NCBI GenBank assembly: GCA_005790605.1
Contig: SXUI01000020.1
Location: 1 to 54,367 of the forward strand
Source of the DNA: Planctomycetia bacterium
GTDB taxonomy: Bacteria > Planctomycetota > Phycisphaerae > Phycisphaerales > SM1A02
DNA length: 54,367 nucleotides
Direction: 5' to 3'
Shown here piece after piece: positions 9,162 through 19,051 of this stretch. Each line of letters begins with the position of its first letter. The stretch's first letter is position 1. The notes beneath the pieces are model-generated. The model had not been told where the DNA came from. It made no database searches and saw only the letters and a program-made list of their open reading frames with translations. A program made the translations under genes and the position numbers.

Positions 9162-10241
9162 TCAGACCGCGTACTCGCGGCCAAATCGATTGGTGATGAA
9201 GTCCTCATAGCGGATGTCCTCCATCCGAATGAAGCCCTTCTGCGGCAGTTTCCCTGCGGCAAGGAGATCGAGCGCAGCGCACACACCAGCAGCGGTCGTG
9301 ATCTGAATGCCAGTCCAATGCTTGCCGTCGAATGTGCGCGCTGGGATGCGTCGAGCGTCCGTCTTCTCGACGAGGCGTCCGTTCTCGATTCCAATCGCAA
9401 CGCACACCGTCACAATCACATCATCGTTGGTTGCGGGAATCGCGCGGTCAAACACCGAGCACAACTCCTCGCGCTTGTCGATGAAACCAAGGTCGTGGAG
9501 CAAGAACTTCATGAGATTGCAGTGACCTGGGTACCGGATTGTCTTGTAGTTGACGCTGCGCGCCTTGCCAGACAATGACTCCGCGAGTGATCCGAGACCG
9601 CCTGAAGTATTGAACGCCTCGTACTCCGTGCCATGAATCGTAAAGCGCTCGAGGTTCTCAAGCGGAGGAAGCAGCGTCATCTTTCCATCCACGAGCGCTT
9701 CGCAGGGATTGCAGTACTCATTGATGAGACCGTTCGTCGACCAAGTCATGTTGTACTTCAATTGATTCGACGGGAACTGCGGCAGCGCGCCAACGCGGCA
9801 ACGAAGCTCGTGAATCTCAGACATCGGTGCGGCGAGATGATTCGCCGCGATCGTGATGTATCCAGGAGCTAGCCCGCACTGCGGAATGAATGCGGCCGAA
9901 GCGCCTTGCGCGAGCGCCATCACGCTCTTCGTCACGGCAACATCCTCCGTCAAGTCGAGATAGTGCACCCCGTTCGCTTTCGCTCGCGATGCAATGAGTG
10001 TGTTGCAGAAAAAGGGCGCGCATGAAATGACCGCCCACGCAGACTTCAACGCCGCATCGAGTTGCGCAGCATTTTGAAAGTCGATCGTCGAACCGGTCGT
10101 ATTGGGAAGGCCTTCGACCGCCGTGCGCCATGATGGCTCGTGCGCATCCACCACGCGGACCGCGTACTCGCCGGTCTTCGCGAGGAAGTGCGCAGTCATC
10201 TTGCCAATTTTGCCTGCTCCGATGATCGTCACGGTCTTCAT
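9162..10241 (-). CDS. Saccharopine dehydrogenase family reductase
   Basis: This 359-residue cytoplasmic NAD(P)-dependent protein starts with a Rossmann glycine motif (VTIIGAGKIGKMTAHFLA). It then has the saccharopine-dehydrogenase pattern (SCAPFFCNTLIASRAKANG, VHYLDLTEDVAV, FIPQCGLAPGYITIAA). Later stretches (LRCRVGALPQFP, NTSGGLGSLAESLSGK, TIRYPGHCNLMKFLLHDLG) also fit lysine-ketoglutarate / saccharopine reductase relatives. The exact substrate cannot be assigned; carboxynorspermidine, saccharopine and related iminium reductions are all possible. It follows the Wsp operon on the same strand after a 77-bp gap, so read-through is possible but a functional link is not evident. It converges on the DUF1080 gene. 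Confidence 0.82.
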   Translation of the reverse strand: MKTVTIIGAGKIGKMTAHFLAKTGEYAVRVVDAHEPSWRTAVEGLPNTTGSTIDFQNAAQLDAALKSAWAVISCAPFFCNTLIASRAKANGVHYLDLTEDVAVTKSVMALAQGASAAFIPQCGLAPGYITIAANHLAAPMSEIHELRCRVGALPQFPSNQLKYNMTWSTNGLINEYCNPCEALVDGKMTLLPPLENLERFTIHGTEYEAFNTSGGLGSLAESLSGKARSVNYKTIRYPGHCNLMKFLLHDLGFIDKREELCSVFDRAIPATNDDVIVTVCVAIGIENGRLVEKTDARRIPARTFDGKHWTGIQITTAAGVCAALDLLAAGKLPQKGFIRMEDIRYEDFITNRFGREYAV

Positions 10242-10318: not shown

Positions 10319-11473
10319 CTACAGCACTATTTCCACCATGGAATAATCATCGTCCCAGGAGTCATTTCCCTGCAATTTCTGAGTATGGGACATCATGCCT
10401 TCGAGCCGCGCATCCGCTGCAGTTTGTTCCATGAATGCAACGAAGGAATCGAAGTCCCACATGCCCCCACTCGGCAGATGGATCTCAAACACGCCGTCGG
10501 AATAGAGATAGAGGCGATCGCCCGTCTGAAGCTGCACGCGCTCTGTCGGAGCGCTGTAGTCAGGCGTGACGCCGATCATGTAGCTCGTCGATTCCAGCCG
10601 CTGCGCATGACCAGCTCGTAACAACAGCGCCGGTGGATGCCCGCCTCCAGCCCAGGTCAGTTCGCGCGCCGACTTCGAGTACACGCCATACCACACCGTG
10701 AAGTACATCCCATGATGGCGCTCCATGGGAAATGCAGCGTTCAGCGCACTCAGGACGCGCGATGGGTCAAGCGCCTGCGCGACATCACTCGCATTGGATC
10801 GGATGAGATTGAGCGCGCTCACGCCCATCAACGCAGGGCCGACGCCATGACCACTCACATCAAGCACATACATCGCGAGATGGTCAGCGTCGATCCAGTG
10901 ATATCCGAAGACATCGCCACCGAGGCTCGCCGACGGAATGAATCGCCAATCCGCGGCGATCTCGCCCTGCATCGGAGCGTCGAGGAGCGAGCGCACGTAC
11001 TCGCTCGCCTTTCGGATTTCTGCGGAGAGATGCGCTTCGCTCGACTGCAACGCTTCGTACGCCGCGTTGCGCTCTAACTGCGCCTTGTATCCGCGCGAGT
11101 GATGCACGACTCGCGCCACAAGTTCCACCGGATCGGGCAACTTGACGATGTAGTCATTCGCTCCGCGCGCGAACGCTTCCGCCTTTGTCGCAGCTTCCTC
11201 CTTTGACGAAAGCACGACAATCGGCACTTCTGCCGTGCTGTGATCGGCGCGATACGCACGCACGAGATCAAGTCCATCGACACCAGGCATCACGAGATCC
11301 TGCAAAATGACTGTGGGTTGAAACGCACGGGCAGTTTCGAGTGCCTTCTGTGGATCGTCGATCGCGAGGTACTCAAGGCCAGCGATGGATGCAAGCATGC
11401 GTCGCACAGCCTCGCCAATGATGCGCTGGTCGTCGACAAGAAGTACGCGATCGGTGAAGTGAGAAAGATCCAT
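10319..11473 (-). CDS. WspR-like receiver fused to PP2C (RsbU/SpoIIE) phosphatase: output of the Wsp operon
   Basis: This 384-residue cytoplasmic response regulator has an N-terminal receiver (residues ~8-125) that closely follows the receiver of Pseudomonas WspR: VDDQRIIGEAVRR, TVILQDLVMPGVDGL with phosphoacceptor Asp59, and ARGANDYIVKLPDPVELVAR with Lys111. A helical linker (~130-165) leads to a PP2C/SpoIIE-type phosphatase instead of the GGDEF domain of WspR. Its metal-binding acidic residues are present: GGDVF (Asp187), DVSGHG (205-210), GGGHPP, YSDG (Asp326) and the terminal DDDYSMV. ATG 11473 is preferred; the frame continues upstream without similarity. It lies 28 bp after wspF in the position where wspR normally sits. 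It should dephosphorylate a phosphoserine or phosphothreonine partner, for example an anti-sigma antagonist; none is seen in the window. Confidence 0.9.
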   Translation of the reverse strand: MDLSHFTDRVLLVDDQRIIGEAVRRMLASIAGLEYLAIDDPQKALETARAFQPTVILQDLVMPGVDGLDLVRAYRADHSTAEVPIVVLSSKEEAATKAEAFARGANDYIVKLPDPVELVARVVHHSRGYKAQLERNAAYEALQSSEAHLSAEIRKASEYVRSLLDAPMQGEIAADWRFIPSASLGGDVFGYHWIDADHLAMYVLDVSGHGVGPALMGVSALNLIRSNASDVAQALDPSRVLSALNAAFPMERHHGMYFTVWYGVYSKSARELTWAGGGHPPALLLRAGHAQRLESTSYMIGVTPDYSAPTERVQLQTGDRLYLYSDGVFEIHLPSGGMWDFDSFVAFMEQTAADARLEGMMSHTQKLQGNDSWDDDYSMVEIVL

Positions 11474-11501
11474 GAATCGTCGTCCGTTCAGCTCTGCGCG
11501 G

Positions 11502-12560
11502 TCAGGCGTGAGGCTTTCTTTGCGCGGAGTCAACGCGCAACGCTGCTCCACATGCGGCTGCGATACTGCCGAGCGGAAGCACCTCATGCGCCGCTCCGAG
11601 CGCGACCGCCGCGCCTGGCATACCCCACACCACGCTCGTCGCCTGATCTTGCGCGATCGTGCGCCAGCCCGCTTGCTTCAGCGCGAGTAATCCACTCGCG
11701 CCGTCCTTGCCCATGCCCGTCAACAACACTGCTACACCCGCAGTGCCATGCAGCGCGTAAGAGTTGAAGAGCGCATCCACACTTGGCTTGTGTAGCGAAT
11801 CTTCGCTCCCGTCCGTTTGCCCGAGCTCGCCGGATGGCTGCAGCGTGAGATGACGATCGTCCCCTGCCACAACGACATCGCCCATTCGCAATCGCTCCCC
11901 TGCTCTCGCGAGGCGCACTTGCACGCCGCTCTTACTCGAGAGCCATCGCGTCAGACCTTCTGTGAAATCGCGCGACACATGCTGCACGATCACAATCGCG
12001 GCAGGGACTGGCTTTGGAAGCGCTGCCAAGATTTCTCCAAGCGCTCGAGGTCCACCGGTCGATGCTCCAAGGAGAATCGTTGGCGTTGCGATGTGCGCTG
12101 CTTGCGCTTTGGGTGCGCGGGGAACGAGCGAGATGACAGGGGTCAAGTCTGCGACTCGAACGATGCGTTTGAGTCGTCGAATGAGTTCGGCGCCGCCTCC
12201 CACCACGCCGTCCCTCGCAAGCGTCGGTGTGTTCACTGCGTCTCTCGCCCCGGCGCCGAGCGCGTCGTATACGAGCGCAGCATTCCCACTCACGGTCGCC
12301 GTGACCACCAGAATCGGAACTGGCGACGCCTTCATGATTCGTCGCGTCGCCTCCACGCCGTCCAAGACAGGCATGATGAGATCCATCAAGATGGCATCCG
12401 GCCTGTCCTTTGCGCATAGGGCGACGGCCTCTTCCCCATCTCGCGCAATCCATGCGGGCTCGAGCATCGGATCGGAACAGATCACCCGACGAAGGGCTTC
12501 GCACGCAAGCGCGAGATCATTCACGATGCCGATTCTGAGGGTCTTCGGTTTCACGCTCAT
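11502..12560 (-). CDS. wspF: WspF-like chemoreceptor methylesterase (CheB family)
   Basis: This is a 352-residue receiver-methylesterase protein that removes methyl groups from the receptor and so adapts or silences the pathway. The receiver begins RIGIVNDLALACEALRR as in Pseudomonas WspF; the phosphoacceptor is Asp60 (AILMDLIMPVLDG). The position of the usual conserved receiver lysine reads GARDAVNTP, without lysine; as I recall WspF is similar there. The esterase domain keeps the Ser-His-Asp triad: Ser167 in GASTGG, His194 in VIVQH, Asp286 in TGMGKDGA. Its start overlaps the wspE stop in an ATGA, so translation is probably coupled. Loss of WspF function locks Pseudomonas Wsp on; the equivalent effect is expected here but is inference. 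Confidence 0.92.
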   Translation of the reverse strand: MSVKPKTLRIGIVNDLALACEALRRVICSDPMLEPAWIARDGEEAVALCAKDRPDAILMDLIMPVLDGVEATRRIMKASPVPILVVTATVSGNAALVYDALGAGARDAVNTPTLARDGVVGGGAELIRRLKRIVRVADLTPVISLVPRAPKAQAAHIATPTILLGASTGGPRALGEILAALPKPVPAAIVIVQHVSRDFTEGLTRWLSSKSGVQVRLARAGERLRMGDVVVAGDDRHLTLQPSGELGQTDGSEDSLHKPSVDALFNSYALHGTAGVAVLLTGMGKDGASGLLALKQAGWRTIAQDQATSVVWGMPGAAVALGAAHEVLPLGSIAAACGAALRVDSAQRKPHA

Positions 12561-14785
12561 GCTTCTGCCTCGCCAATGAGATCACGCACCATTGCGGCGA
12601 AGGACTGGTCTTCAAACGCGCCCTTCGTGAGATATGCATTGGCCCCCGCATGCATTCCTGCGAGCCGGTCCTCCTCTCGATCCTTGTAGGAAACGATAAT
12701 GATCGGCGTCGAAGCAATCGCGACATCAGCGCGCACGGTGCGCGTGAGCTCGATGCCAGTCATGCGCGGCATGTCCACATCGCTCACTAACAAGTCGAAT
12801 CCGCCACCGCGGAGTGCGTAAAGACCATCGACGCCATCGTTGGCCGTCTCAACTTCGTAACCGAGTCGAACAAGAAGTTGTCGCTCGACCTCGCGAACCG
12901 TCGCGCTGTCATCCACGACGAGCACTCGCTTGCGTCGCGCCGACAGTGTGCTGATCGCGCGACGCTTTGCAGCAGGAGACCGACCCTCGGTCAATTGCTG
13001 GCGCATGGAGGACAGGATGTCTTCGCTGTCGACGATGAGTGCTGGCTCTCCGTCCTCACGAATCGCCGCTGCGGAAACATGCGGAACTTTGCCAAGTCGC
13101 GCATCAAGAGTCCGAACAACAAGGTCTTCCTCTCCCACGAAGTCGTCCACTAGGAATCCGTACCAATCTTCGCCGCCGAGCACGACGATGCTCGCGCGTT
13201 CACGCAGGTCCACGGTTCCGAGTTCAAAGAGTGTCGCGGCATCCACAAGACCAACGGAGCGCGTGTCGAGCGGAAACTGCAGGCGCCCCTCGATGGTCGT
13301 CAGTTCTGATGCCGGAATCTGCACCACCCGTTCAATTCGGGCGAGCGGGAAAGCGAATGTCTCACCACTCACTTCCGTCAGCAGTGCGCGAACAACACTC
13401 ACCGTGATTGGAAGCTCTAACTCAAAGACCGTTCCCGTACCGGGAACGCTCTCCACGCGCACACTTCCGCCGACTTCGCGCATCGTGCTTTGCACGACAT
13501 CAAGTCCGACGCCCCTTCCTGAAAGTTCCGTCACGCTCGATGCTGTTGAAAACCCTGGCAAGAAAAGGAACTCCAACACCTCTTGCGTACTCATCGTCGC
13601 GACCATCTCCGCACTCGCGAGCGACTTGCGAACAACGCTCTCCCGTACGCGGTTGGCGAGAATTCCGCGACCGTCGTCGCCAACGCGGATGCGCAGCATG
13701 CCAGCCTCATGCCGCGCAGCAACGCGGAGTACTCCAGAGGAGGGCTTGCCCGCCGCGCGCCGTTCATCTGGCATCTCCATGCCGTGATCGAGCGCATTGC
13801 GAAGAAGGTGATTCAGAGGCGCTTCGAGCCGCGCAAGAATGTCGCGGTCCACTTGCACGGTCTCACCGTCAATCTCAAGTCGCACTTCCTTTCCGAGAGC
13901 ACGCGCGAGATCGCGAACCGTTCTTGGGAGCGCGCCCGTGACATCCGCAAATGGACGCATCCGACTTGAGAGAACTTCGTGATAGAGCGAGTTCGCGGTT
14001 TCTTCGCCTCGGCGGATCGACTCATCGACCGTCACTGTCTGGAGCGCAACCTCAGTGCGCGTGCGCTGCACCATTCGTCGCAACGGAGCGAGCGTAGACG
14101 CATCAATCCCCTGCTGTCGCATCACGGTTCGCAAGCGATCGAGTTCGTCCTCCATTTCAATGACGCGCGACTTCAACGCGCCGGATTGCCGACGCACAAC
14201 CTCCATGCGCCGCGACTCAAGCATCATTTCGCCAGCGAGTTGAAGCAGACGATCGAGTTTTTCGGCCGTCACGCGAACCGCCGAACCGCGCGCCTGCGGC
14301 TCCGTCGGAGGCGCGCTCGCCGCCGTCGGTGCCGCAATCGCCGCCGCGCGTTGGGGCGCAGCTATCGCAGGCCGCTCAAGCTCCACGGATTCAGCAGGCT
14401 TCGAGAGTGCCGCCCCCAGTTCGGCGAGCACGGATGCGTGTGCTTGCATCCACTCCGGAACTTGGGACTCCGAAATCGTCGCAAGCGACGCGAGCACATC
14501 GGTCGCGCGCAGCAATTGGTCGATGCGTGAAGCGGTGGGAGACTCTCGACCTTGCTGCATTGCAACAAGCGTGTCCTCCATGCCGTGCGCAAACTCAACC
14601 ACACGTTCGAGCCCGATCACCTTTGCTGCGCCTTTGATCGAATGCGCTGCGCGCATGAGTGGCTCGATGTCCGAAGGCGATGCGCTTTGCTCAAGCTTGA
14701 TCAATCCAGCGGAAAGCGTCGCCGCATGTTGCTCTGCTTCGCCACGGAAGAGTTCGTAGAGCGAGAAACCACCGAGGTCGCTCAT
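12557..14785 (-). CDS. wspE: WspE-like hybrid histidine kinase (CheA-REC)
   Basis: This 742-residue cytoplasmic CheA-type kinase ends in a receiver. In order: an HPt domain with phosphorylatable His48 (RAAHSIKGAAKV), a P3 dimerisation helix pair, and the ATPase domain (NHLLRNALDHGMEMP, VGDDGRGI, SGRGVGLDVV). A CheW-like P5 domain follows, then a C-terminal receiver (VLVVDDSATVREVERQLL, LLVSDVDMPRMTG, VSYKDREEDR). There is no separate P2 domain. It is expected to phosphorylate the downstream REC-PP2C protein and WspF; the attached receiver may tune or drain phosphate. The start is ATG 14785, with GGAAGGAG seven bases upstream and an ATGA overlap with the wspD stop; the earlier GTG at 14812 is unlikely. 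Confidence 0.93.
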   Translation of the reverse strand: MSDLGGFSLYELFRGEAEQHAATLSAGLIKLEQSASPSDIEPLMRAAHSIKGAAKVIGLERVVEFAHGMEDTLVAMQQGRESPTASRIDQLLRATDVLASLATISESQVPEWMQAHASVLAELGAALSKPAESVELERPAIAAPQRAAAIAAPTAASAPPTEPQARGSAVRVTAEKLDRLLQLAGEMMLESRRMEVVRRQSGALKSRVIEMEDELDRLRTVMRQQGIDASTLAPLRRMVQRTRTEVALQTVTVDESIRRGEETANSLYHEVLSSRMRPFADVTGALPRTVRDLARALGKEVRLEIDGETVQVDRDILARLEAPLNHLLRNALDHGMEMPDERRAAGKPSSGVLRVAARHEAGMLRIRVGDDGRGILANRVRESVVRKSLASAEMVATMSTQEVLEFLFLPGFSTASSVTELSGRGVGLDVVQSTMREVGGSVRVESVPGTGTVFELELPITVSVVRALLTEVSGETFAFPLARIERVVQIPASELTTIEGRLQFPLDTRSVGLVDAATLFELGTVDLRERASIVVLGGEDWYGFLVDDFVGEEDLVVRTLDARLGKVPHVSAAAIREDGEPALIVDSEDILSSMRQQLTEGRSPAAKRRAISTLSARRKRVLVVDDSATVREVERQLLVRLGYEVETANDGVDGLYALRGGGFDLLVSDVDMPRMTGIELTRTVRADVAIASTPIIIVSYKDREEDRLAGMHAGANAYLTKGAFEDQSFAAMVRDLIGEAEA

Positions 14786-15375
14786 CGAAGACTCCTTCCA
14801 AGCATTGTGCACACGCGCGCCGTATCAAGCAGCGCGACGAGCGATGCGTTCGCATTCGCATCGACCCGCACGAGCGCGATGGCGCAGCCATCCGCCGCGC
14901 GAGCCACGGTGGCCGGCGGTGACTGAAATCGAGCCTCCCCCAGACGCAACACGCCCTCGACGAGATCAACTGGAATCGCCCATCGGTCCTGCGCGGCACC
15001 AATCACAACGAATCGCGCTTGTCCGCTCGGCTGAAATTCTGCGAGCCCAAGTGCATGATCGAGTCGACCAACGGCGGTCAGTTCGCCCGCAACATTGGCG
15101 AGCCCGGCAAACACTGCGTTCGTTCGATGTGGAACTCGTCGTACTGTCGTCACCGCAACAACGCGATGCGATTCGCTCGCCTCAAGCGCGAACCGTTCGC
15201 CACCTAACTGAAAGATGAGCAGGCTTCGAAGCGTCCCCTCATGTGCGGGTTCTGGCTGCGCAATGTTGCGTGTATTCGCGGCAACCACACTTGGGTCTAT
15301 GGGGCGCGCAAGCAACTCGCGCATTCGGCCAAAGCCATCCGTGTCCTTCGTTGAGGCAAGTTCGTGATCGCTCAT
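14782..15375 (-). CDS. wspD: WspD-like CheW coupling protein
   Basis: This is a 197-residue CheW-family scaffold protein that links the chemoreceptor to the WspE kinase. A ~45-residue N-terminal extension precedes the CheW fold, seen as SLLIFQLGGERFALEASE, GLANVAGELTAVGRL, RFVVIGAAQDRWAIPVD and VEGVLRL. It is the second of two CheW proteins in the operon, as in the classical Wsp arrangement, and the one placed directly before the kinase. Start and stop both overlap the neighbouring genes in ATGA tetranucleotides, so expression is very probably coupled. No unusual residues are evident. Confidence 0.88.
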   Translation of the reverse strand: MSDHELASTKDTDGFGRMRELLARPIDPSVVAANTRNIAQPEPAHEGTLRSLLIFQLGGERFALEASESHRVVAVTTVRRVPHRTNAVFAGLANVAGELTAVGRLDHALGLAEFQPSGQARFVVIGAAQDRWAIPVDLVEGVLRLGEARFQSPPATVARAADGCAIALVRVDANANASLVALLDTARVCTMLGRSLR

Positions 15376-16514
15376 CGCGCCTCCGCCTCACTCGCGAGAT
15401 GCGCTCTCCACGCGCGCGCACGAAAGCGCTCTGATTCCATTGACCGACCTTGTTGCTCGAGTAAAAGCGCGAGCGACAAGAGCGCAGACTCGCGCCTCTG
15501 CTCAAGATAAAGCGCACGGCGCAGCGACCCCTCCGCCGCAGCCGCGTCGCCAGCCGTAAGCTCGAGAGCAGCCAGCGCCTCATGCAGCGAGGCACACGAT
15601 GGATCTTGCGCAACCGCCGCGCGCGCTTGTTCAAGCGGTGTCTGCGACGCTGCAATCGGAGTCGCGACAGCAATCGGTGCACTCGCGACTGGGGCCTCTA
15701 CGCTCGACGCTGGCGAGAGCGCGATCCACGGCTTCGTGACTGACGCAACTCTCGCCCGCAGCGCGAACGCTCCAACCTCTGCGATCGGCGCGAAGCCCGC
15801 CTGCTCGGCCACACGCATCTCCGCGTGGCCGACGAAGAGCACACCGTCATGCGCAAGGACGGATCGCAGGCGCGCGAGGATTGCAAGTCGCATCGCATCA
15901 GAGAGGTAGATCGCGACATTGCGAAAGAAGATCGCGTCGTAGTGCCCCTGAAGCGGGCAACTTCGCAAATCTCCAGCTTCAAGCGAAATGCGCGAGGCAA
16001 GCGCGCGATCGAGCGCGACGCCCTGCATCGGCGTCGGAAGCGGAACGAAACTCACAGCAGCCCAAGACGGTATCGGCTCACGCACGAGCGTTCCGCTGAA
16101 CGCATTGAGCGCCTGTGCCGCTTCGACACTCTGATCAATCGCGTCAACCGCGATGCATGACGGCGCGAGGCCTGCACTCACGAGAGTCGCCACGATGCTC
16201 GCCGGTTCAGCGAGTCCGCCACTTCCAGCACTCAGCATGCGGCAACCACTCGATCGACCGCGGTACATCCGCCGTAGCAACTCGAAAGACGCCGGATACC
16301 GAAACAGCCAAGTTTCGCTCGGGGCGCACGCGGCGACCACGCGCGAGCGCTCTTCTGCACTTCGCTCAAGCAGCGCAAGGTATGCATCGCAATCGGCGCA
16401 CGCGAGAGCTCGCTGCCGTTCCATCAGAAACGGCGTCAATGCGGCAACACTCACCGCATCTTCTCGGATCGCGCCGCTCCGAGCCAGCCAAGATGCCACT
16501 CGCTCGGCGTTCAT
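15372..16514 (-). CDS. wspC: WspC-like CheR receptor methyltransferase with C-terminal helical repeats
   Basis: This 380-residue protein has a CheR methyltransferase domain (residues ~1-260). A low-complexity Ala/Pro/Val linker follows, then a C-terminal TPR-like region (about 285-370: CASLHEALAALELTAGD, AAEGSLRRALYLEQRRES). The architecture matches WspC, which methylates WspA glutamates using S-adenosylmethionine. Family positions visible are SETWLFRYPASFELLRR and FFRNVAIYLSDAMRLAIL. The SAM-binding motif is unusual: where CheR proteins have a C-S-x-G-E-E-P-Y-S pattern, this one reads SAGSGGLAEPASIV. It overlaps wspB and wspD by ATGA at each end. Confidence 0.87.
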   Translation of the reverse strand: MNAERVASWLARSGAIREDAVSVAALTPFLMERQRALACADCDAYLALLERSAEERSRVVAACAPSETWLFRYPASFELLRRMYRGRSSGCRMLSAGSGGLAEPASIVATLVSAGLAPSCIAVDAIDQSVEAAQALNAFSGTLVREPIPSWAAVSFVPLPTPMQGVALDRALASRISLEAGDLRSCPLQGHYDAIFFRNVAIYLSDAMRLAILARLRSVLAHDGVLFVGHAEMRVAEQAGFAPIAEVGAFALRARVASVTKPWIALSPASSVEAPVASAPIAVATPIAASQTPLEQARAAVAQDPSCASLHEALAALELTAGDAAAAEGSLRRALYLEQRRESALLSLALLLEQQGRSMESERFRARAWRAHLASEAEAR

Positions 16515-16972
16515 CCCGACGCGCCTCCATCCAATGCGGCATCAAGTGGCAAGCGCCGCTGATCCGCCATCAATCGATCGCATCGAATCAATTGCAGTGT
16601 GCCATCTGCATCAGGAATGGTTGGACCAAAGTGCGCGGCGCCGCCAAATCCGAATCCAGGGTGCGCGCACGGCGCATCGAAATCGCGATCGCCTAGCCCT
16701 ATGACTTCTTCGACGAGTAGGCCAAGCGCATCCCCTTCCGGAAGTTGCACCATCACGATTCGCGAGCCCATGCGCAGTTTCGCTGGTGTGCCGACAATCA
16801 TGTGAGCAAGGTCCACGAGTGGAACAAGCGTGCCGCGCCGGTTGAACAACCCAAGCAGCCACTCGGGCCCCCCGTGCGCACTGCGATACTCAACCATCGG
16901 AAGCACTTCGAGAATCTCACTCGCCGCTATCGCGAAGCGCCGGCCTTCAATTTCGAGAAAGAGCGCCTGCAT
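16511..16972 (-). CDS. wspB: WspB-like CheW coupling protein
   Basis: This is a 153-residue single-domain CheW protein. The fold is visible as ALFLEIEGRRFAIAASEI, EWLLGLFNRRGTLVPLVD, IVMVQLPEGDALGLLVEEV and IGLGDRDF. It should join the WspA receptor to the WspE kinase at the membrane array. Its ATG follows the receptor stop directly (TGAATG), and its stop overlaps the wspC start, so it lies in the same transcript. Being first after the receptor gene fits the WspB position. Confidence 0.88.
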   Translation of the reverse strand: MQALFLEIEGRRFAIAASEILEVLPMVEYRSAHGGPEWLLGLFNRRGTLVPLVDLAHMIVGTPAKLRMGSRIVMVQLPEGDALGLLVEEVIGLGDRDFDAPCAHPGFGFGGAAHFGPTIPDADGTLQLIRCDRLMADQRRLPLDAALDGGASG

Positions 16973-19051
16973 TCACCCTCCCGATCTCGGAAGTCGAAAC
17001 CGCGCGACCGCCTCTTGCAAGAACGCGACCGCGTGTGAAAGTTCATCCGCGACGCGAGAGCACTCTGAGACGCTGACGCCGGTTTCGCGTGCGCCAGCGA
17101 CAAGCGTTTGCATCGCCTCGTGAATCTGTTGGACGCCAAGCGCCTGCGTTTGCATGCCCTCCTTCACAGCACCGAAACGTTCACTCGACTTCTTGAACTC
17201 TTCGATGATCTGAGTGAGCACCTGACTCACGCGACTCACTTCCTCAAGTCCCGTACTCATCTCGCCGGCAAGCTTGCCCATCTCTCGATTTCCACTGACA
17301 ACCGCCTCCTGCATCTGTCGAACCATGCGCTCGATATCGAGGGTCGCCGCTGCGGTCTGATCCGCGAGGTGTCGCACTTCGCGCGCAACCACAAGAAAGC
17401 CTCGGCCAGAGTCTCCGGCTTTCTCGGCCTCGATCGCGGCATTGACTGAGAGCAGATTCGTTTGCTCGGCGACCTTCGCGATGGTGTTCACAACGCCCGT
17501 GATCGCTTGCGCCTTCTCACTGATCGCTTCAAGTCGCTCCGCAACCTCAGTGGTCGATTTATCAAGTCGCTGGACCGAGACCGTCATCGCTTCAAGCCCC
17601 GCGCGTCCCGTCGTTGCGGATGCTGCGCTTCGACGCGCACCAAGGTCGACCTCATCCACACTTCGCAAGAGTTCCGCGCCTGTGCCGCCAATCTCTCGAA
17701 TCGCTGCTGCAATCTGCGCGGTCGACCCACTGAATGACTCGACGGTGCGCGACTGCTGCCGCGAGGTTGCGCTCAACTCAGCCGCGCTTGCTGCGAGATG
17801 CTGCGCGTTGCCGCGAACGCTTCCGACGATGTCCGCCAGTTGCCGGCGCATCGACTCCACGCCACGCAACAGTTCCGCCGTTTCATCCTGACCCGTGACT
17901 GCGCCACCCTCAGACGCGAGGTCGCCTTGTGCGATCCCACTCGCGGCTACTTGCGCAAGCCGCACTCGAGCAGCCGTCCGCGCCGCAACCATCCACAAGA
18001 GTGAAACGAGGATTACTAAACCAACGAGCGCTGTGACGAAGTTGAGCGTGACAGCCCAAAGGGTTCCCGCGAGCATCTCGCGTTGCGGTTTTCGAAGCAC
18101 GAAATGCCAATCGCCAGGAGTAATGGTGGCGGAGACGTAGTAACACTCCTCGCCGAGTACCGGATCGCTGTGCTCCGTGAGTGCAATCTCGCCCGCTGGC
18201 GCGATCGATGCAAAGTACGGCGCGTATGCGGTCCCCTTCACCGCCTTGGTCCGAATCCGAGCCGTCCGCGCCGCATCGTCACTGCCTGAGGGATCGGTCG
18301 TCGCGAGCAGGTAGAAGCCACGCGTCTCGAGAAAAATGTCGCCGCCAAGTTCGCGCGCCATGGCTTCGAGGTCATGCTGTATTCTTGCAAGCGGGATATC
18401 GACGCACGCGACGCCGGCAAACTTCTTCTCGATGATGATCGGATGAACACACTCGATGATGTCATCGCCGTGATACTCGTACGGCTTCGTAATCACCGTC
18501 GCAACGACGCCGCCGCGCTCGAAGACTTCCTTCGGGTGCGCGTACCACAGGCCACCATCATCTTCGGTGTCCTCTGTAGGCTCCAACACCAAGCCGCCCG
18601 GCGTCGACTCGTCACGCCTTATATATGGAAGAAATCGACCGGCCGCATCCATCGCCTCCGCGGGAATTGTCCCGGCAGCGAGTGCTGCTGCGTCGGCGCC
18701 GTCCGTGGATGGCTCATACACGATGTACGCGCCTCGCCAGTCCGGATTCGCGCCCGCCGTTCGACGGAGCAGTTCGAGCGTCTCTGCGCGCTTTCCATAG
18801 AGGCCACTCTCTTGCGCGTGCGCCAGCGTCCGAGTGGCGAGCGCGGCCTCGGCGTTTTGTCGCTCGATGTGTGCGACCGCGACGCCCGCTCGCTCGCGCA
18901 ATTCTCGTTCAAGAGCATGCGCAGAAGCAAAGTAAGCGCGGACCCCACTCGAAGTGACCACCGCGACGAGCACGAACGCCGTTGGGAGGACCCCAAACAA
19001 CAAACTTCGACCAAGCATCGACCGTAAGAATGGCACCTTCGAAGTACTCAT
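16973..19051 (-). CDS. wspA: WspA-like chemoreceptor with periplasmic Cache-type sensor
   Basis: This is a 692-residue methyl-accepting protein and the first gene of the Wsp-type operon. In order: a cytoplasmic N-tip, TM1 (~15-37), a ~290-residue periplasmic region resembling a double-Cache (PDC) sensor (GAYIVYEPSTDG, GLWYAHPKEVFERGG, FAGVACVDIPL, YYVSATITPGDWHF), TM2 (~330-356), HAMP, and a long signalling coiled coil. The hairpin tip (~529-555, EQTNLLSVNAAIEAEKAG) and the adjoining ADQTAAATLDIERMVRQMQ resemble WspA. No C-terminal NWETF-type tether is present. The ligand is unknown; Pseudomonas WspA responds to surface contact, which cannot be assumed here. The structured repeat block lies upstream, beyond the start. 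Confidence 0.9.
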   Translation of the reverse strand: MSTSKVPFLRSMLGRSLLFGVLPTAFVLVAVVTSSGVRAYFASAHALERELRERAGVAVAHIERQNAEAALATRTLAHAQESGLYGKRAETLELLRRTAGANPDWRGAYIVYEPSTDGADAAALAAGTIPAEAMDAAGRFLPYIRRDESTPGGLVLEPTEDTEDDGGLWYAHPKEVFERGGVVATVITKPYEYHGDDIIECVHPIIIEKKFAGVACVDIPLARIQHDLEAMARELGGDIFLETRGFYLLATTDPSGSDDAARTARIRTKAVKGTAYAPYFASIAPAGEIALTEHSDPVLGEECYYVSATITPGDWHFVLRKPQREMLAGTLWAVTLNFVTALVGLVILVSLLWMVAARTAARVRLAQVAASGIAQGDLASEGGAVTGQDETAELLRGVESMRRQLADIVGSVRGNAQHLAASAAELSATSRQQSRTVESFSGSTAQIAAAIREIGGTGAELLRSVDEVDLGARRSAASATTGRAGLEAMTVSVQRLDKSTTEVAERLEAISEKAQAITGVVNTIAKVAEQTNLLSVNAAIEAEKAGDSGRGFLVVAREVRHLADQTAAATLDIERMVRQMQEAVVSGNREMGKLAGEMSTGLEEVSRVSQVLTQIIEEFKKSSERFGAVKEGMQTQALGVQQIHEAMQTLVAGARETGVSVSECSRVADELSHAVAFLQEAVARFRLPRSGG

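What the first reader, a model, noticed from the sequence alone, without database searches (positions are those of the whole stretch)
10319..19051. Complete Wsp-type operon whose output is a PP2C phosphatase instead of a diguanylate cyclase
Gene order (receptor, CheW, CheR, CheW, CheA-REC, CheB, response regulator) equals wspA-B-C-D-E-F-R of Pseudomonas, and all starts from wspB to wspF overlap or abut. The final receiver follows the WspR receiver closely (VDDQRIIGEAVRR, ILQDLVMPGVDGL, GANDYIVKLPD). After the linker, however, a SpoIIE/RsbU-type PP2C domain with its metal-site Asp residues replaces GGDEF. This implies that a known surface-sensing, c-di-GMP-producing pathway has been rewired to control a Ser/Thr phosphorylation switch, possibly partner switching of a sigma factor. 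I do not know a described example.
Basis: partly seen in the sequence, partly recalled or inferred. Interest (0 to 1): 0.78.

Follow-up and report, generated by a model that had tools for sequence, protein, structure and literature searches.

The report
Wsp-type operon with PP2C phosphatase output
In this bacterium a receptor-kinase pathway best known for making the messenger c-di-GMP ends instead in an enzyme that strips phosphate from proteins, an arrangement that is conserved in its relatives and that a second bacterial group seems to have reached with a different phosphatase.

Summary
Window 10319-19051 (minus strand) is a tight seven-gene chemosensory operon in Wsp order. Its last protein joins a WspR-type receiver, a ~49-residue helix and a SpoIIE/RsbU-type PP2C phosphatase. 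The receiver's best solved relatives are Pseudomonas WspR (154, 140 bits; next PleD, 74). The phosphatase and the whole fold are nearest Pseudomonas RssB. Key site residues are invariant or nearly so in 59 family rows.

In the same family 14 of 21 genomes carry regulator and kinase, adjacent; the other 7 lack both. In 12 planctomycete-labelled drafts the wsp operon has no R after CheB and the same regulator lies on another contig. Four cyanobacterial Wsp loci carry a different PP2C, with SiaB-like and STAS genes beside or near it; one common PP2C clade is rejected (AU p = 0.004).

'No described example' is too strong: REC-PP2C regulators in chemosensory clusters were listed in 2012, and Shewanella Che1/CrsR-CrsA is a proposed case. 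Sigma-factor control is unproven: RsbW/STAS genes lie elsewhere, occur with or without the operon, and no SigB-type sigma passes its cut-off. New variant of a known kind; interest about 0.5.

The parts
16973..19051 (-). WspA-like chemoreceptor (MCP), 692 aa
   Evidence: MCPsignal 105 bits; weak PDC/Cache-like periplasmic match below cut-off; similar receptor at the same place in most operon-bearing relatives
16511..16972 (-). WspB-like CheW, 153 aa
   Evidence: CheW 60.5 bits
15372..16514 (-). WspC-like CheR methyltransferase, 380 aa; C-terminal TPR only hinted at in the window copy
   Evidence: CheR 58 bits; TPR models E 0.24-0.65 here, 7.5e-5 in L044, 2.3e-4 in L130, 4.9e-4 in L140, 8e-6 in Massilia L096, all below Pfam's TPR cut-offs
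14782..15375 (-). WspD-like CheW, 197 aa
   Evidence: CheW 58 bits
12557..14785 (-). WspE-like CheA-REC hybrid kinase, 742 aa
   Evidence: Hpt, dimerisation, HATPase, CheW and REC domains, Hpt motif AAHSIKGAA; orthologue adjacent to F and R in 14 of 14 family genomes that have R
11502..12560 (-). WspF-like CheB methylesterase, 352 aa
   Evidence: REC + CheB_methylest 190 bits; NCBIfam PRK12555 CheB subfamily 391 bits, over its cut-off of 342
10319..11473 (-). Response regulator R, 384 aa: WspR-type receiver, helix 115-163, PP2C
11069..11449 (-). WspR-type receiver of R (residues 9-135): D14, D15, phospho-acceptor D59, S89, K111
   Evidence: D59 and K111 59/59; D14 and D15 58/59 with one gap; S89 is S or T in 59/59; best PDB match WspR 3bre
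10322..10960 (-). PP2C (SpoIIE/RsbU class) of R (residues 172-384): D187, D205, D326, D375, D376
   Evidence: all five 59/59 in the family alignment; SpoIIE 132 bits

Best explanation
A Wsp-class chemosensory array (receptor A, coupling proteins B and D, kinase E, adaptation enzymes C and F) whose output regulator R is a phosphorylation-gated Ser/Thr phosphatase. Proposed chain: receptor state sets WspE autophosphorylation; WspE passes phosphate to D59 of R's WspR-type receiver; the phosphorylated receivers pair, and the long helix carries this to the PP2C domain and switches it on, as proposed for RssB and RsbU/SpoIIE relatives; the phosphatase removes phosphate from Ser/Thr on a STAS-domain antagonist, opposing an RsbW-like kinase encoded elsewhere (best candidate in this genome: STAS ORF 168 aa + RsbW-like ORF 149 aa at G000:C23:32239-33218). 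C and F tune the receptor by methylation. Shown by sequence: operon, kinship of kinase and receiver to Wsp, intact site residues, linker helix in the model, co-inheritance of kinase and R. Inferred: phosphotransfer, activation on phosphorylation, STAS as substrate, which kinase opposes it, and what is finally controlled.
For: Domains and operon. Receiver closest to WspR, 154 bits against 74 for the next family, and in one 101-row set of WspR-type receivers in a 128-row tree (support 90, long branches flagged). PP2C closest to RssB (58 bits), then SpoIIE-class proteins at 23-27 bits. Model pLDDT 90.7 with one helix 115-163 between the domains; top whole-fold match RssB 3f7a/3eq2. Site residues invariant or nearly so in 59 rows, near-duplicates included. 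Co-inheritance: R and WspE both in 14 of 21 family genomes, both missing in 7 of 21, E-F-R adjacent in 14 of 14. R on another contig but kinase kept in 12 genomes. Four cyanobacterial Wsp loci with their own PP2C have a SiaB-like and a STAS gene directly downstream (3 of 4) or nearby on the other strand (1 of 4). RsbW-type (PF13581) and STAS matches in 26 of 26 genomes tested.
Against: No RsbW or STAS gene adjoins R in the window. Such genes are also in all 7 family genomes without the operon, so co-occurrence does not tie them to R. In the 18 stretches fetched round R STAS near R was seen in 2 (G166, about 1.3 kb away; G228, about 9 kb away), and the printed STAS list was cut off. The genome has two other PP2Cs that could serve the C23 pair. 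G160 and G166 have R but no close WspE orthologue; 6 of 20 further genomes with R apart from wsp genes show only a diverged, weak or partial WspE match (completeness not given). WspR-type receivers also occur on HD proteins without WspE, for example in G255. No biochemical data.
Confidence: 0.72

Rival explanations
1. Sigma-factor partner switch proper: R dephosphorylates the C23 STAS protein, which captures the RsbW-like kinase and frees a sigma factor.
For: An RsbW-like (PF13581, 94 bits) and STAS (60 bits) gene pair exists; 7 of 14 operon-bearing family genomes have only one PF13581 match at E <= 1e-6; HsbR and CrsR precedents.
Against: No hit passes the SigB/F/G cut-off; best 119 and 110 bits against 234 (only 1 of 14 control genomes passes it, so divergent sigma factors would be missed). 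The pair is unlinked and such genes are not lost with the operon. Anti-sigma models score far below cut-off on the kinase (31 against 135, 30 against 145).
Confidence: 0.25
2. The switch feeds c-di-GMP by another road: R dephosphorylates a STAS or SiaC-like protein that controls a diguanylate cyclase, so the pathway still ends in c-di-GMP, as SiaABCD and HsbA-HsbD do.
For: Cyanobacterial cousins carry SiaB-like and STAS genes beside or near the operon. HsbA~P binds the cyclase HsbD (PMC5085249 and PMC6482189, passages). The genome has 3 GGDEF genes.
Against: No DUF6272/SiaB match in this genome, though that search rang in no control and is inconclusive; no GGDEF gene in the operon.
Confidence: 0.2
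3. R is not the kinase's own output: an ordinary RsbU-type regulator that happens to lie downstream.
For: In 12 genomes R lies on another contig than the operon, so adjacency is not required; G160 and G166 have R without a close WspE.
Against: The receiver is WspR-type, not RsbU-type; co-inheritance 14 of 14 against 0 of 7 in the family; kinase retained in the genomes with R apart.
Confidence: 0.05

Closest known systems
Wsp system of Pseudomonas/Burkholderia (WspA-F, WspR)
   Same: Gene order (recalled for Pseudomonas; seen in Massilia L096), CheA-REC kinase, two CheW, CheR, CheB, WspR-type receiver.
   Different: Output is PP2C, not GGDEF; no evidence here for surface sensing or c-di-GMP; the receptor's outer domain is only weakly recognised.
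ACF/CheR-TPR chemosensory clusters with varied response regulators (PMC3447774; passages read)
   Same: A family-2C Ser/Thr phosphatase fused to REC is among the outputs listed there.
   Different: The word 'planctomyc' does not occur in its main text; its table S2 was not available to me; the passages read give no phylogeny of these receivers or phosphatases.
Shewanella oneidensis Che1 / CrsR-CrsA and P. aeruginosa HptB / HsbR-HsbA (PMC9855816, PMC6482189, PMC5085249; passages read)
   Same: CrsR is encoded in a chemosensory locus; REC-PP2C regulator; STAS-type antagonist; partner switch.
   Different: CrsR and HsbR carry their own kinase/anti-sigma domain; R ends after the PP2C. Che1 is described with an F7 array, CheD and CheY, not in Wsp order, and its role in RpoS control is given as probable.
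P. aeruginosa RssB (3eq2, 3f7a)
   Same: REC-linker-PP2C without a third domain; nearest whole fold.
   Different: Its receiver is distant (44 bits); a chemosensory partner is not known to me (recall).
Cyanobacterial Wsp + REC-PP2C loci L089, L090, L091, L098
   Same: Wsp genes, WspR-type receiver (192-194 bits), PP2C output.
   Different: PP2C from another lineage (AU p 0.004); slr1658-superfamily (SiaB-like) and STAS genes beside or near.

Membership tests
Wsp chemosensory system | wspA-B-C-D-E-F-R order with CheA-REC kinase | tested here: met
Wsp chemosensory system | WspR-type receiver | tested here: met
Wsp chemosensory system | GGDEF output making c-di-GMP | tested here: not met
   PP2C instead; no WspR-type receiver found on the genome's 3 GGDEF genes. 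Filed as Wsp-type, not as a Wsp c-di-GMP system.
Wsp chemosensory system | WspA-type receptor sensing surface contact | not testable with these tools
   periplasmic region weakly PDC/Cache-like, below cut-off; function needs experiment
ACF chemosensory class | CheR-TPR and multidomain response regulator | tested here: inconclusive
   multidomain regulator met; TPR weak in the window copy (E 0.24-0.65), E below 1e-3 in the 4 other CheR proteins scanned, all below Pfam cut-offs
RsbU/RssB-type PP2C response regulators | REC + SpoIIE-type PP2C with metal-site Asp residues | tested here: met
   which residues bind metal is recalled from the family
RsbU/RssB-type PP2C response regulators | receiver of the same lineage as those regulators | tested here: not met
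   receiver is WspR-type
Partner-switching module | cognate RsbW-type kinase and STAS antagonist acting with the phosphatase | tested here: inconclusive
   present in the genome, unlinked, and also in genomes without the operon
SigB/F-type sigma partner switch | SigB/F/G-family sigma factor | tested here: not met
   0 of 6 hits over the TIGR02980 cut-off; divergent sigma factors are not excluded

The most novel reading that the evidence does not exclude
The Wsp array is a general-purpose chassis: one receptor-kinase core and one receiver type, with the output swapped repeatedly (GGDEF, PP2C at least twice independently, HD-type phosphodiesterase, histidine kinase). In Planctomycetes the usual output is protein dephosphorylation, sometimes paired in tandem with an HD protein expected to break down c-di-GMP, so c-di-GMP synthesis is one use of the array rather than its definition.
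Probability: 0.6. Interest if true: 0.65.

Novelty: new variant of a known kind. Interest (0 to 1): 0.5.

Why it matters
Genomes are read by homology, and Wsp genes of planctomycetes, WspR included, have been taken in print as surface-attachment or biofilm genes (PMC6461901, PMC9119077; passages). If those regulators are REC-PP2C, as in the relatives here, that reading needs checking. The system also offers a natural experiment: the same kinase and receiver type with different outputs, including two apparently independent PP2C fusions, which lets one ask how one receiver switches unrelated enzymes. The cyanobacterial version, with SiaB-like and STAS genes beside it, makes the substrate question directly testable.

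Tried and rejected
Rejected: ordinary RsbU receiver (scores bimodal); a separate GGDEF WspR. Inconclusive: SiaB/DUF6272 partner in this genome (no hit, but no control rang). The first ORF picker took antisense ORFs in GC-rich DNA and was replaced by a homology-first picker. The receiver tree has 50 of 123 inner branches open and is not used to say which output is ancestral. Paper searches in which I saw no report of a planctomycete Wsp operon ending in PP2C: 20 of 535 listed; 14 of 14; 25 of 164; 20 of 38; 4 of 4; 12 of 15; followed single names. These cover an open-access library only.

Rows dropped before counts: before the domain tables, ORFs matching WspE over 250 bits or WspF over 150 bits. 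For the receiver tree 25 locus names were excluded as duplicates or short-flank copies, besides rows with receivers under 25 bits or under 105 residues, short ORFs matching only the kinase's receiver, and histidine-kinase, undetermined, L116, L121 and L122 rows with receivers under 100 bits. 25 names were excluded for the PP2C tree and 21 for the output count. L047 was excluded in the two trees as a copy of L124, but their contig lengths show it is another record; this does not change a conclusion. In one search the truncated L077 was mislabelled 'otherREC'. The 52 rows were picked from the 102. The search for related loci kept 80 of 546 confirmed relatives, itself a capped list, chosen by likeness to R, and the genome search scored only the best 6 candidates per genome, so counts of outputs are biased toward PP2C. 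Some record labels look like binning errors (Limnohabitans L046, Kuenenia L045, Mycobacterium L092, Mycolicibacterium L106), so taxon names are used loosely.
Full report
OBSERVATION. The final gene most likely starts at 11473, 28 bp behind CheB, rather than at 11587. The genome has 3.03 Mb in 80 contigs and is 99% complete.

RECEIVER. Against all PDB sequences the receiver (residues 1-135) finds Pseudomonas WspR first (3bre 154 bits, 3i5a 140 bits), then PleD at 74; RssB is at 44. A receiver profile splits the collected proteins into two groups with nothing between 90 and 140 bits. In a 128-row tree the 101 WspR-type rows lie on one side of a branch of length 1.42 with support 90. The program warned of long branches in that tree, so I rest on the scores more than on the tree.

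PHOSPHATASE. The C-terminal domain is SpoIIE/RsbU class (132 bits), nearest in the PDB to RssB (58 bits). In a family alignment of 59 rows, window and near-duplicates included, D187, D205, D326, D375 and D376 are 59/59, as are receiver D59 and K111; D14 and D15 are 58/59 with one gap. Which of these bind metal or phosphate is recalled from the families. The AlphaFold model (pLDDT 90.7, pTM 0.71; alignment of 19 sequences) has one helix, residues 115-163, between the domains; the best whole-fold match is RssB (TM 0.57, rmsd 7.3 A for the first hit, so domain packing differs or is uncertain).

CONSERVATION. Of 298 class genomes sampled, 19 have a near full-length R at 49% identity or more, the window's own included; 59 of 298 have some match at E <= 1e-30. 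In the window's family 14 of 21 have R, and exactly these 14 have a WspE orthologue (49-64% identity, own copy aside). The other 7 have neither: six give no kinase match and G125 only 32-33% matches. G255, one of the seven, does hold a WspR-type receiver on an HD protein, and G297 a partial PP2C match. Ignoring relatedness the exact probability of the 14/7 split is about 9e-6 (my arithmetic, 1/116280). E, F and R are adjacent in all 14. In G237 and G285 a REC-HD gene sits between F and R. In G055 R is near the operon but on the other strand. G160 and G166 have R without a close WspE orthologue.

NO GGDEF VERSION SEEN IN THE CLASS SAMPLE. Of the receiver-only matches to R at E <= 1e-30 I count 17 places; 15 were fetched and none gave a GGDEF hit: 12 gave an HD hit and 3 (L164, L165, L170) neither. 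Two places (G231:C65, G209:C103) were not fetched.

SPLIT OPERONS. Twenty loci had R with no wsp gene recognised in the fetched DNA (some contigs are only 3-8 kb). Their genomes, with four controls, were searched with WspE: 14 of these 20 have a match of at least 40% identity covering most of the protein; L079's has 38%, L073's 29%, and those of L070, L080, L081 and L082 are weak or partial. Sixteen regions round kinase genes were fetched; in 12 (L171-L182) the DNA beyond CheB is visible and no R follows, and R sits on a contig of different length. In L172, L177 and L180 the upstream part is cut. L183 ends inside CheB; L184 shows no R but another gene after CheB; L185 and L186 are divergent. 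All 12 are draft genomes with planctomycete labels.

OTHER OUTPUTS. On WspR-type receivers in this sample, with a WspE-type kinase in the locus: planctomycete-type PP2C 30 rows (some duplicate records), histidine kinase 7, GGDEF 4, cyanobacterial PP2C 4, HD 4 (each in tandem with a PP2C regulator), undetermined or short 2. Outputs were assigned by BLAST to examples; Pfam was run on a few of each kind except that one HD regulator (L059) was scanned. Without the kinase nearby there are also longer HD proteins (L161-L163 and others; not scanned), a nucleotide cyclase (L101), SpoIIE in Desulfobacterales records (L114, L116) and an FAD/NAD-binding domain (L164, L170). The sample was drawn by likeness to R and is not a census.

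TWO ORIGINS OF THE PP2C. Cyanobacterial Wsp loci (Brasilonema L089, Argonema L090, uncultured L091, Cuspidothrix L098) have WspR-type receivers (192-194 bits), but their PP2C is 19, 25 and 21% identical to the window's where aligned in the first three and gave no BLAST hit to it in the fourth. In a 52-row tree the 23 window-type PP2Cs fall with 9 PP2Cs without a receiver from the window's class (100/100); two of these nine were scanned and have a GAF domain. The four cyanobacterial ones form their own clade (100/99) elsewhere. Holding the two wsp-receiver groups as one clade is rejected (p-AU 0.0037). The groups were chosen after a first tree and a long branch is involved, so the p-value is somewhat optimistic.

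PARTNERS. In L089-L091 the PP2C gene is followed by a gene of one family and a STAS-like gene. In L089 and L090 the first is a slr1658-superfamily protein over cut-off that also matches the SiaB-kinase model weakly (28 and 30 bits, cut-off 85), in L089 the second is a slr1659-superfamily protein over cut-off; L091 was not scanned. In L098 the pair is nearby on the other strand, its first member a slr1658 protein over cut-off. In the window's genome the best candidates are a STAS ORF (168 aa; reads HMSSAALG at the usual phospho-serine place, by eye) and an RsbW-like ORF (149 aa) side by side on C23. PF13581 and STAS matches occur in 26 of 26 genomes tested, including the seven without the operon, so they fit but do not prove a link. 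SigB/F/G: 6 hits, none over cut-off. PF19788 gave nothing, and nothing in the controls.

LITERATURE. PMC3447774 (passages) lists family-2C phosphatase among REC fusions in CheR-TPR clusters. PMC9855816 and PMC6482189 (passages) describe Shewanella Che1 with CrsR-CrsA and RpoS control; PMC5085249 (passages) gives HsbR-HsbA. PMC8552884 (passages) places the origin of the Wsp systems it studied in betaproteobacteria; 'Planctomycet' does not occur in its main text. PMC7555055 (passages) reports an slr1658 mutant phenotype in Synechocystis. The class of idea is therefore known. In the listings and the papers opened I saw none on a Wsp operon ending in PP2C in planctomycetes. PMC6461901 and PMC9119077 mention WspR in planctomycetes without domain detail in the passages read; that those genes are REC-PP2C is my guess.

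VERDICT. Real and conserved, with intact sites; the mechanism up to a regulated PP2C is likely, its substrate unknown. New variant of a known kind.

Noticed in passing
L089 9980-12505, L090, L091, L098: Cyanobacterial Wsp loci with a separately acquired PP2C and, beside or near it, slr1658-type (SiaB-like) and STAS genes; in L089 a mechanosensitive-channel gene comes next.
   Followed up: partly
L164 1360-3216, L170 3-1640 (and L165, not scanned): WspR-type receiver fused to a large FAD/NAD-binding (NAD_binding_9) domain in relatives from the window's family; no such output is known to me.
   Followed up: partly
L059, L076, L130, L133 (and L137 without Wsp genes): Tandem regulators: REC-HD directly followed by REC-PP2C.
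   Followed up: partly
L171-L182: wsp operons with no R gene after CheB, in draft genomes that hold R on another contig.
   Followed up: yes
window 9162-10241: 359-aa gene directly downstream of R; a same-length neighbour of R in near relatives (scanned in L045) is saccharopine-dehydrogenase-like, function unknown.
   Followed up: partly
L101 9817-11331: WspR-type receiver fused to an adenylate/guanylate cyclase domain in a Desulfobacterales record.
   Followed up: no
L131 10022 onward: In family genome G155 no WspA-like receptor was recognised upstream of wspB; an ORF of 594 aa with weak receiver and HD hits lies there instead.
   Followed up: no
L053 and L055: Almost the same locus under Ignavibacteriae and Desulfobulbaceae names: probable binning error in one of them, or recent transfer.
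   Followed up: no
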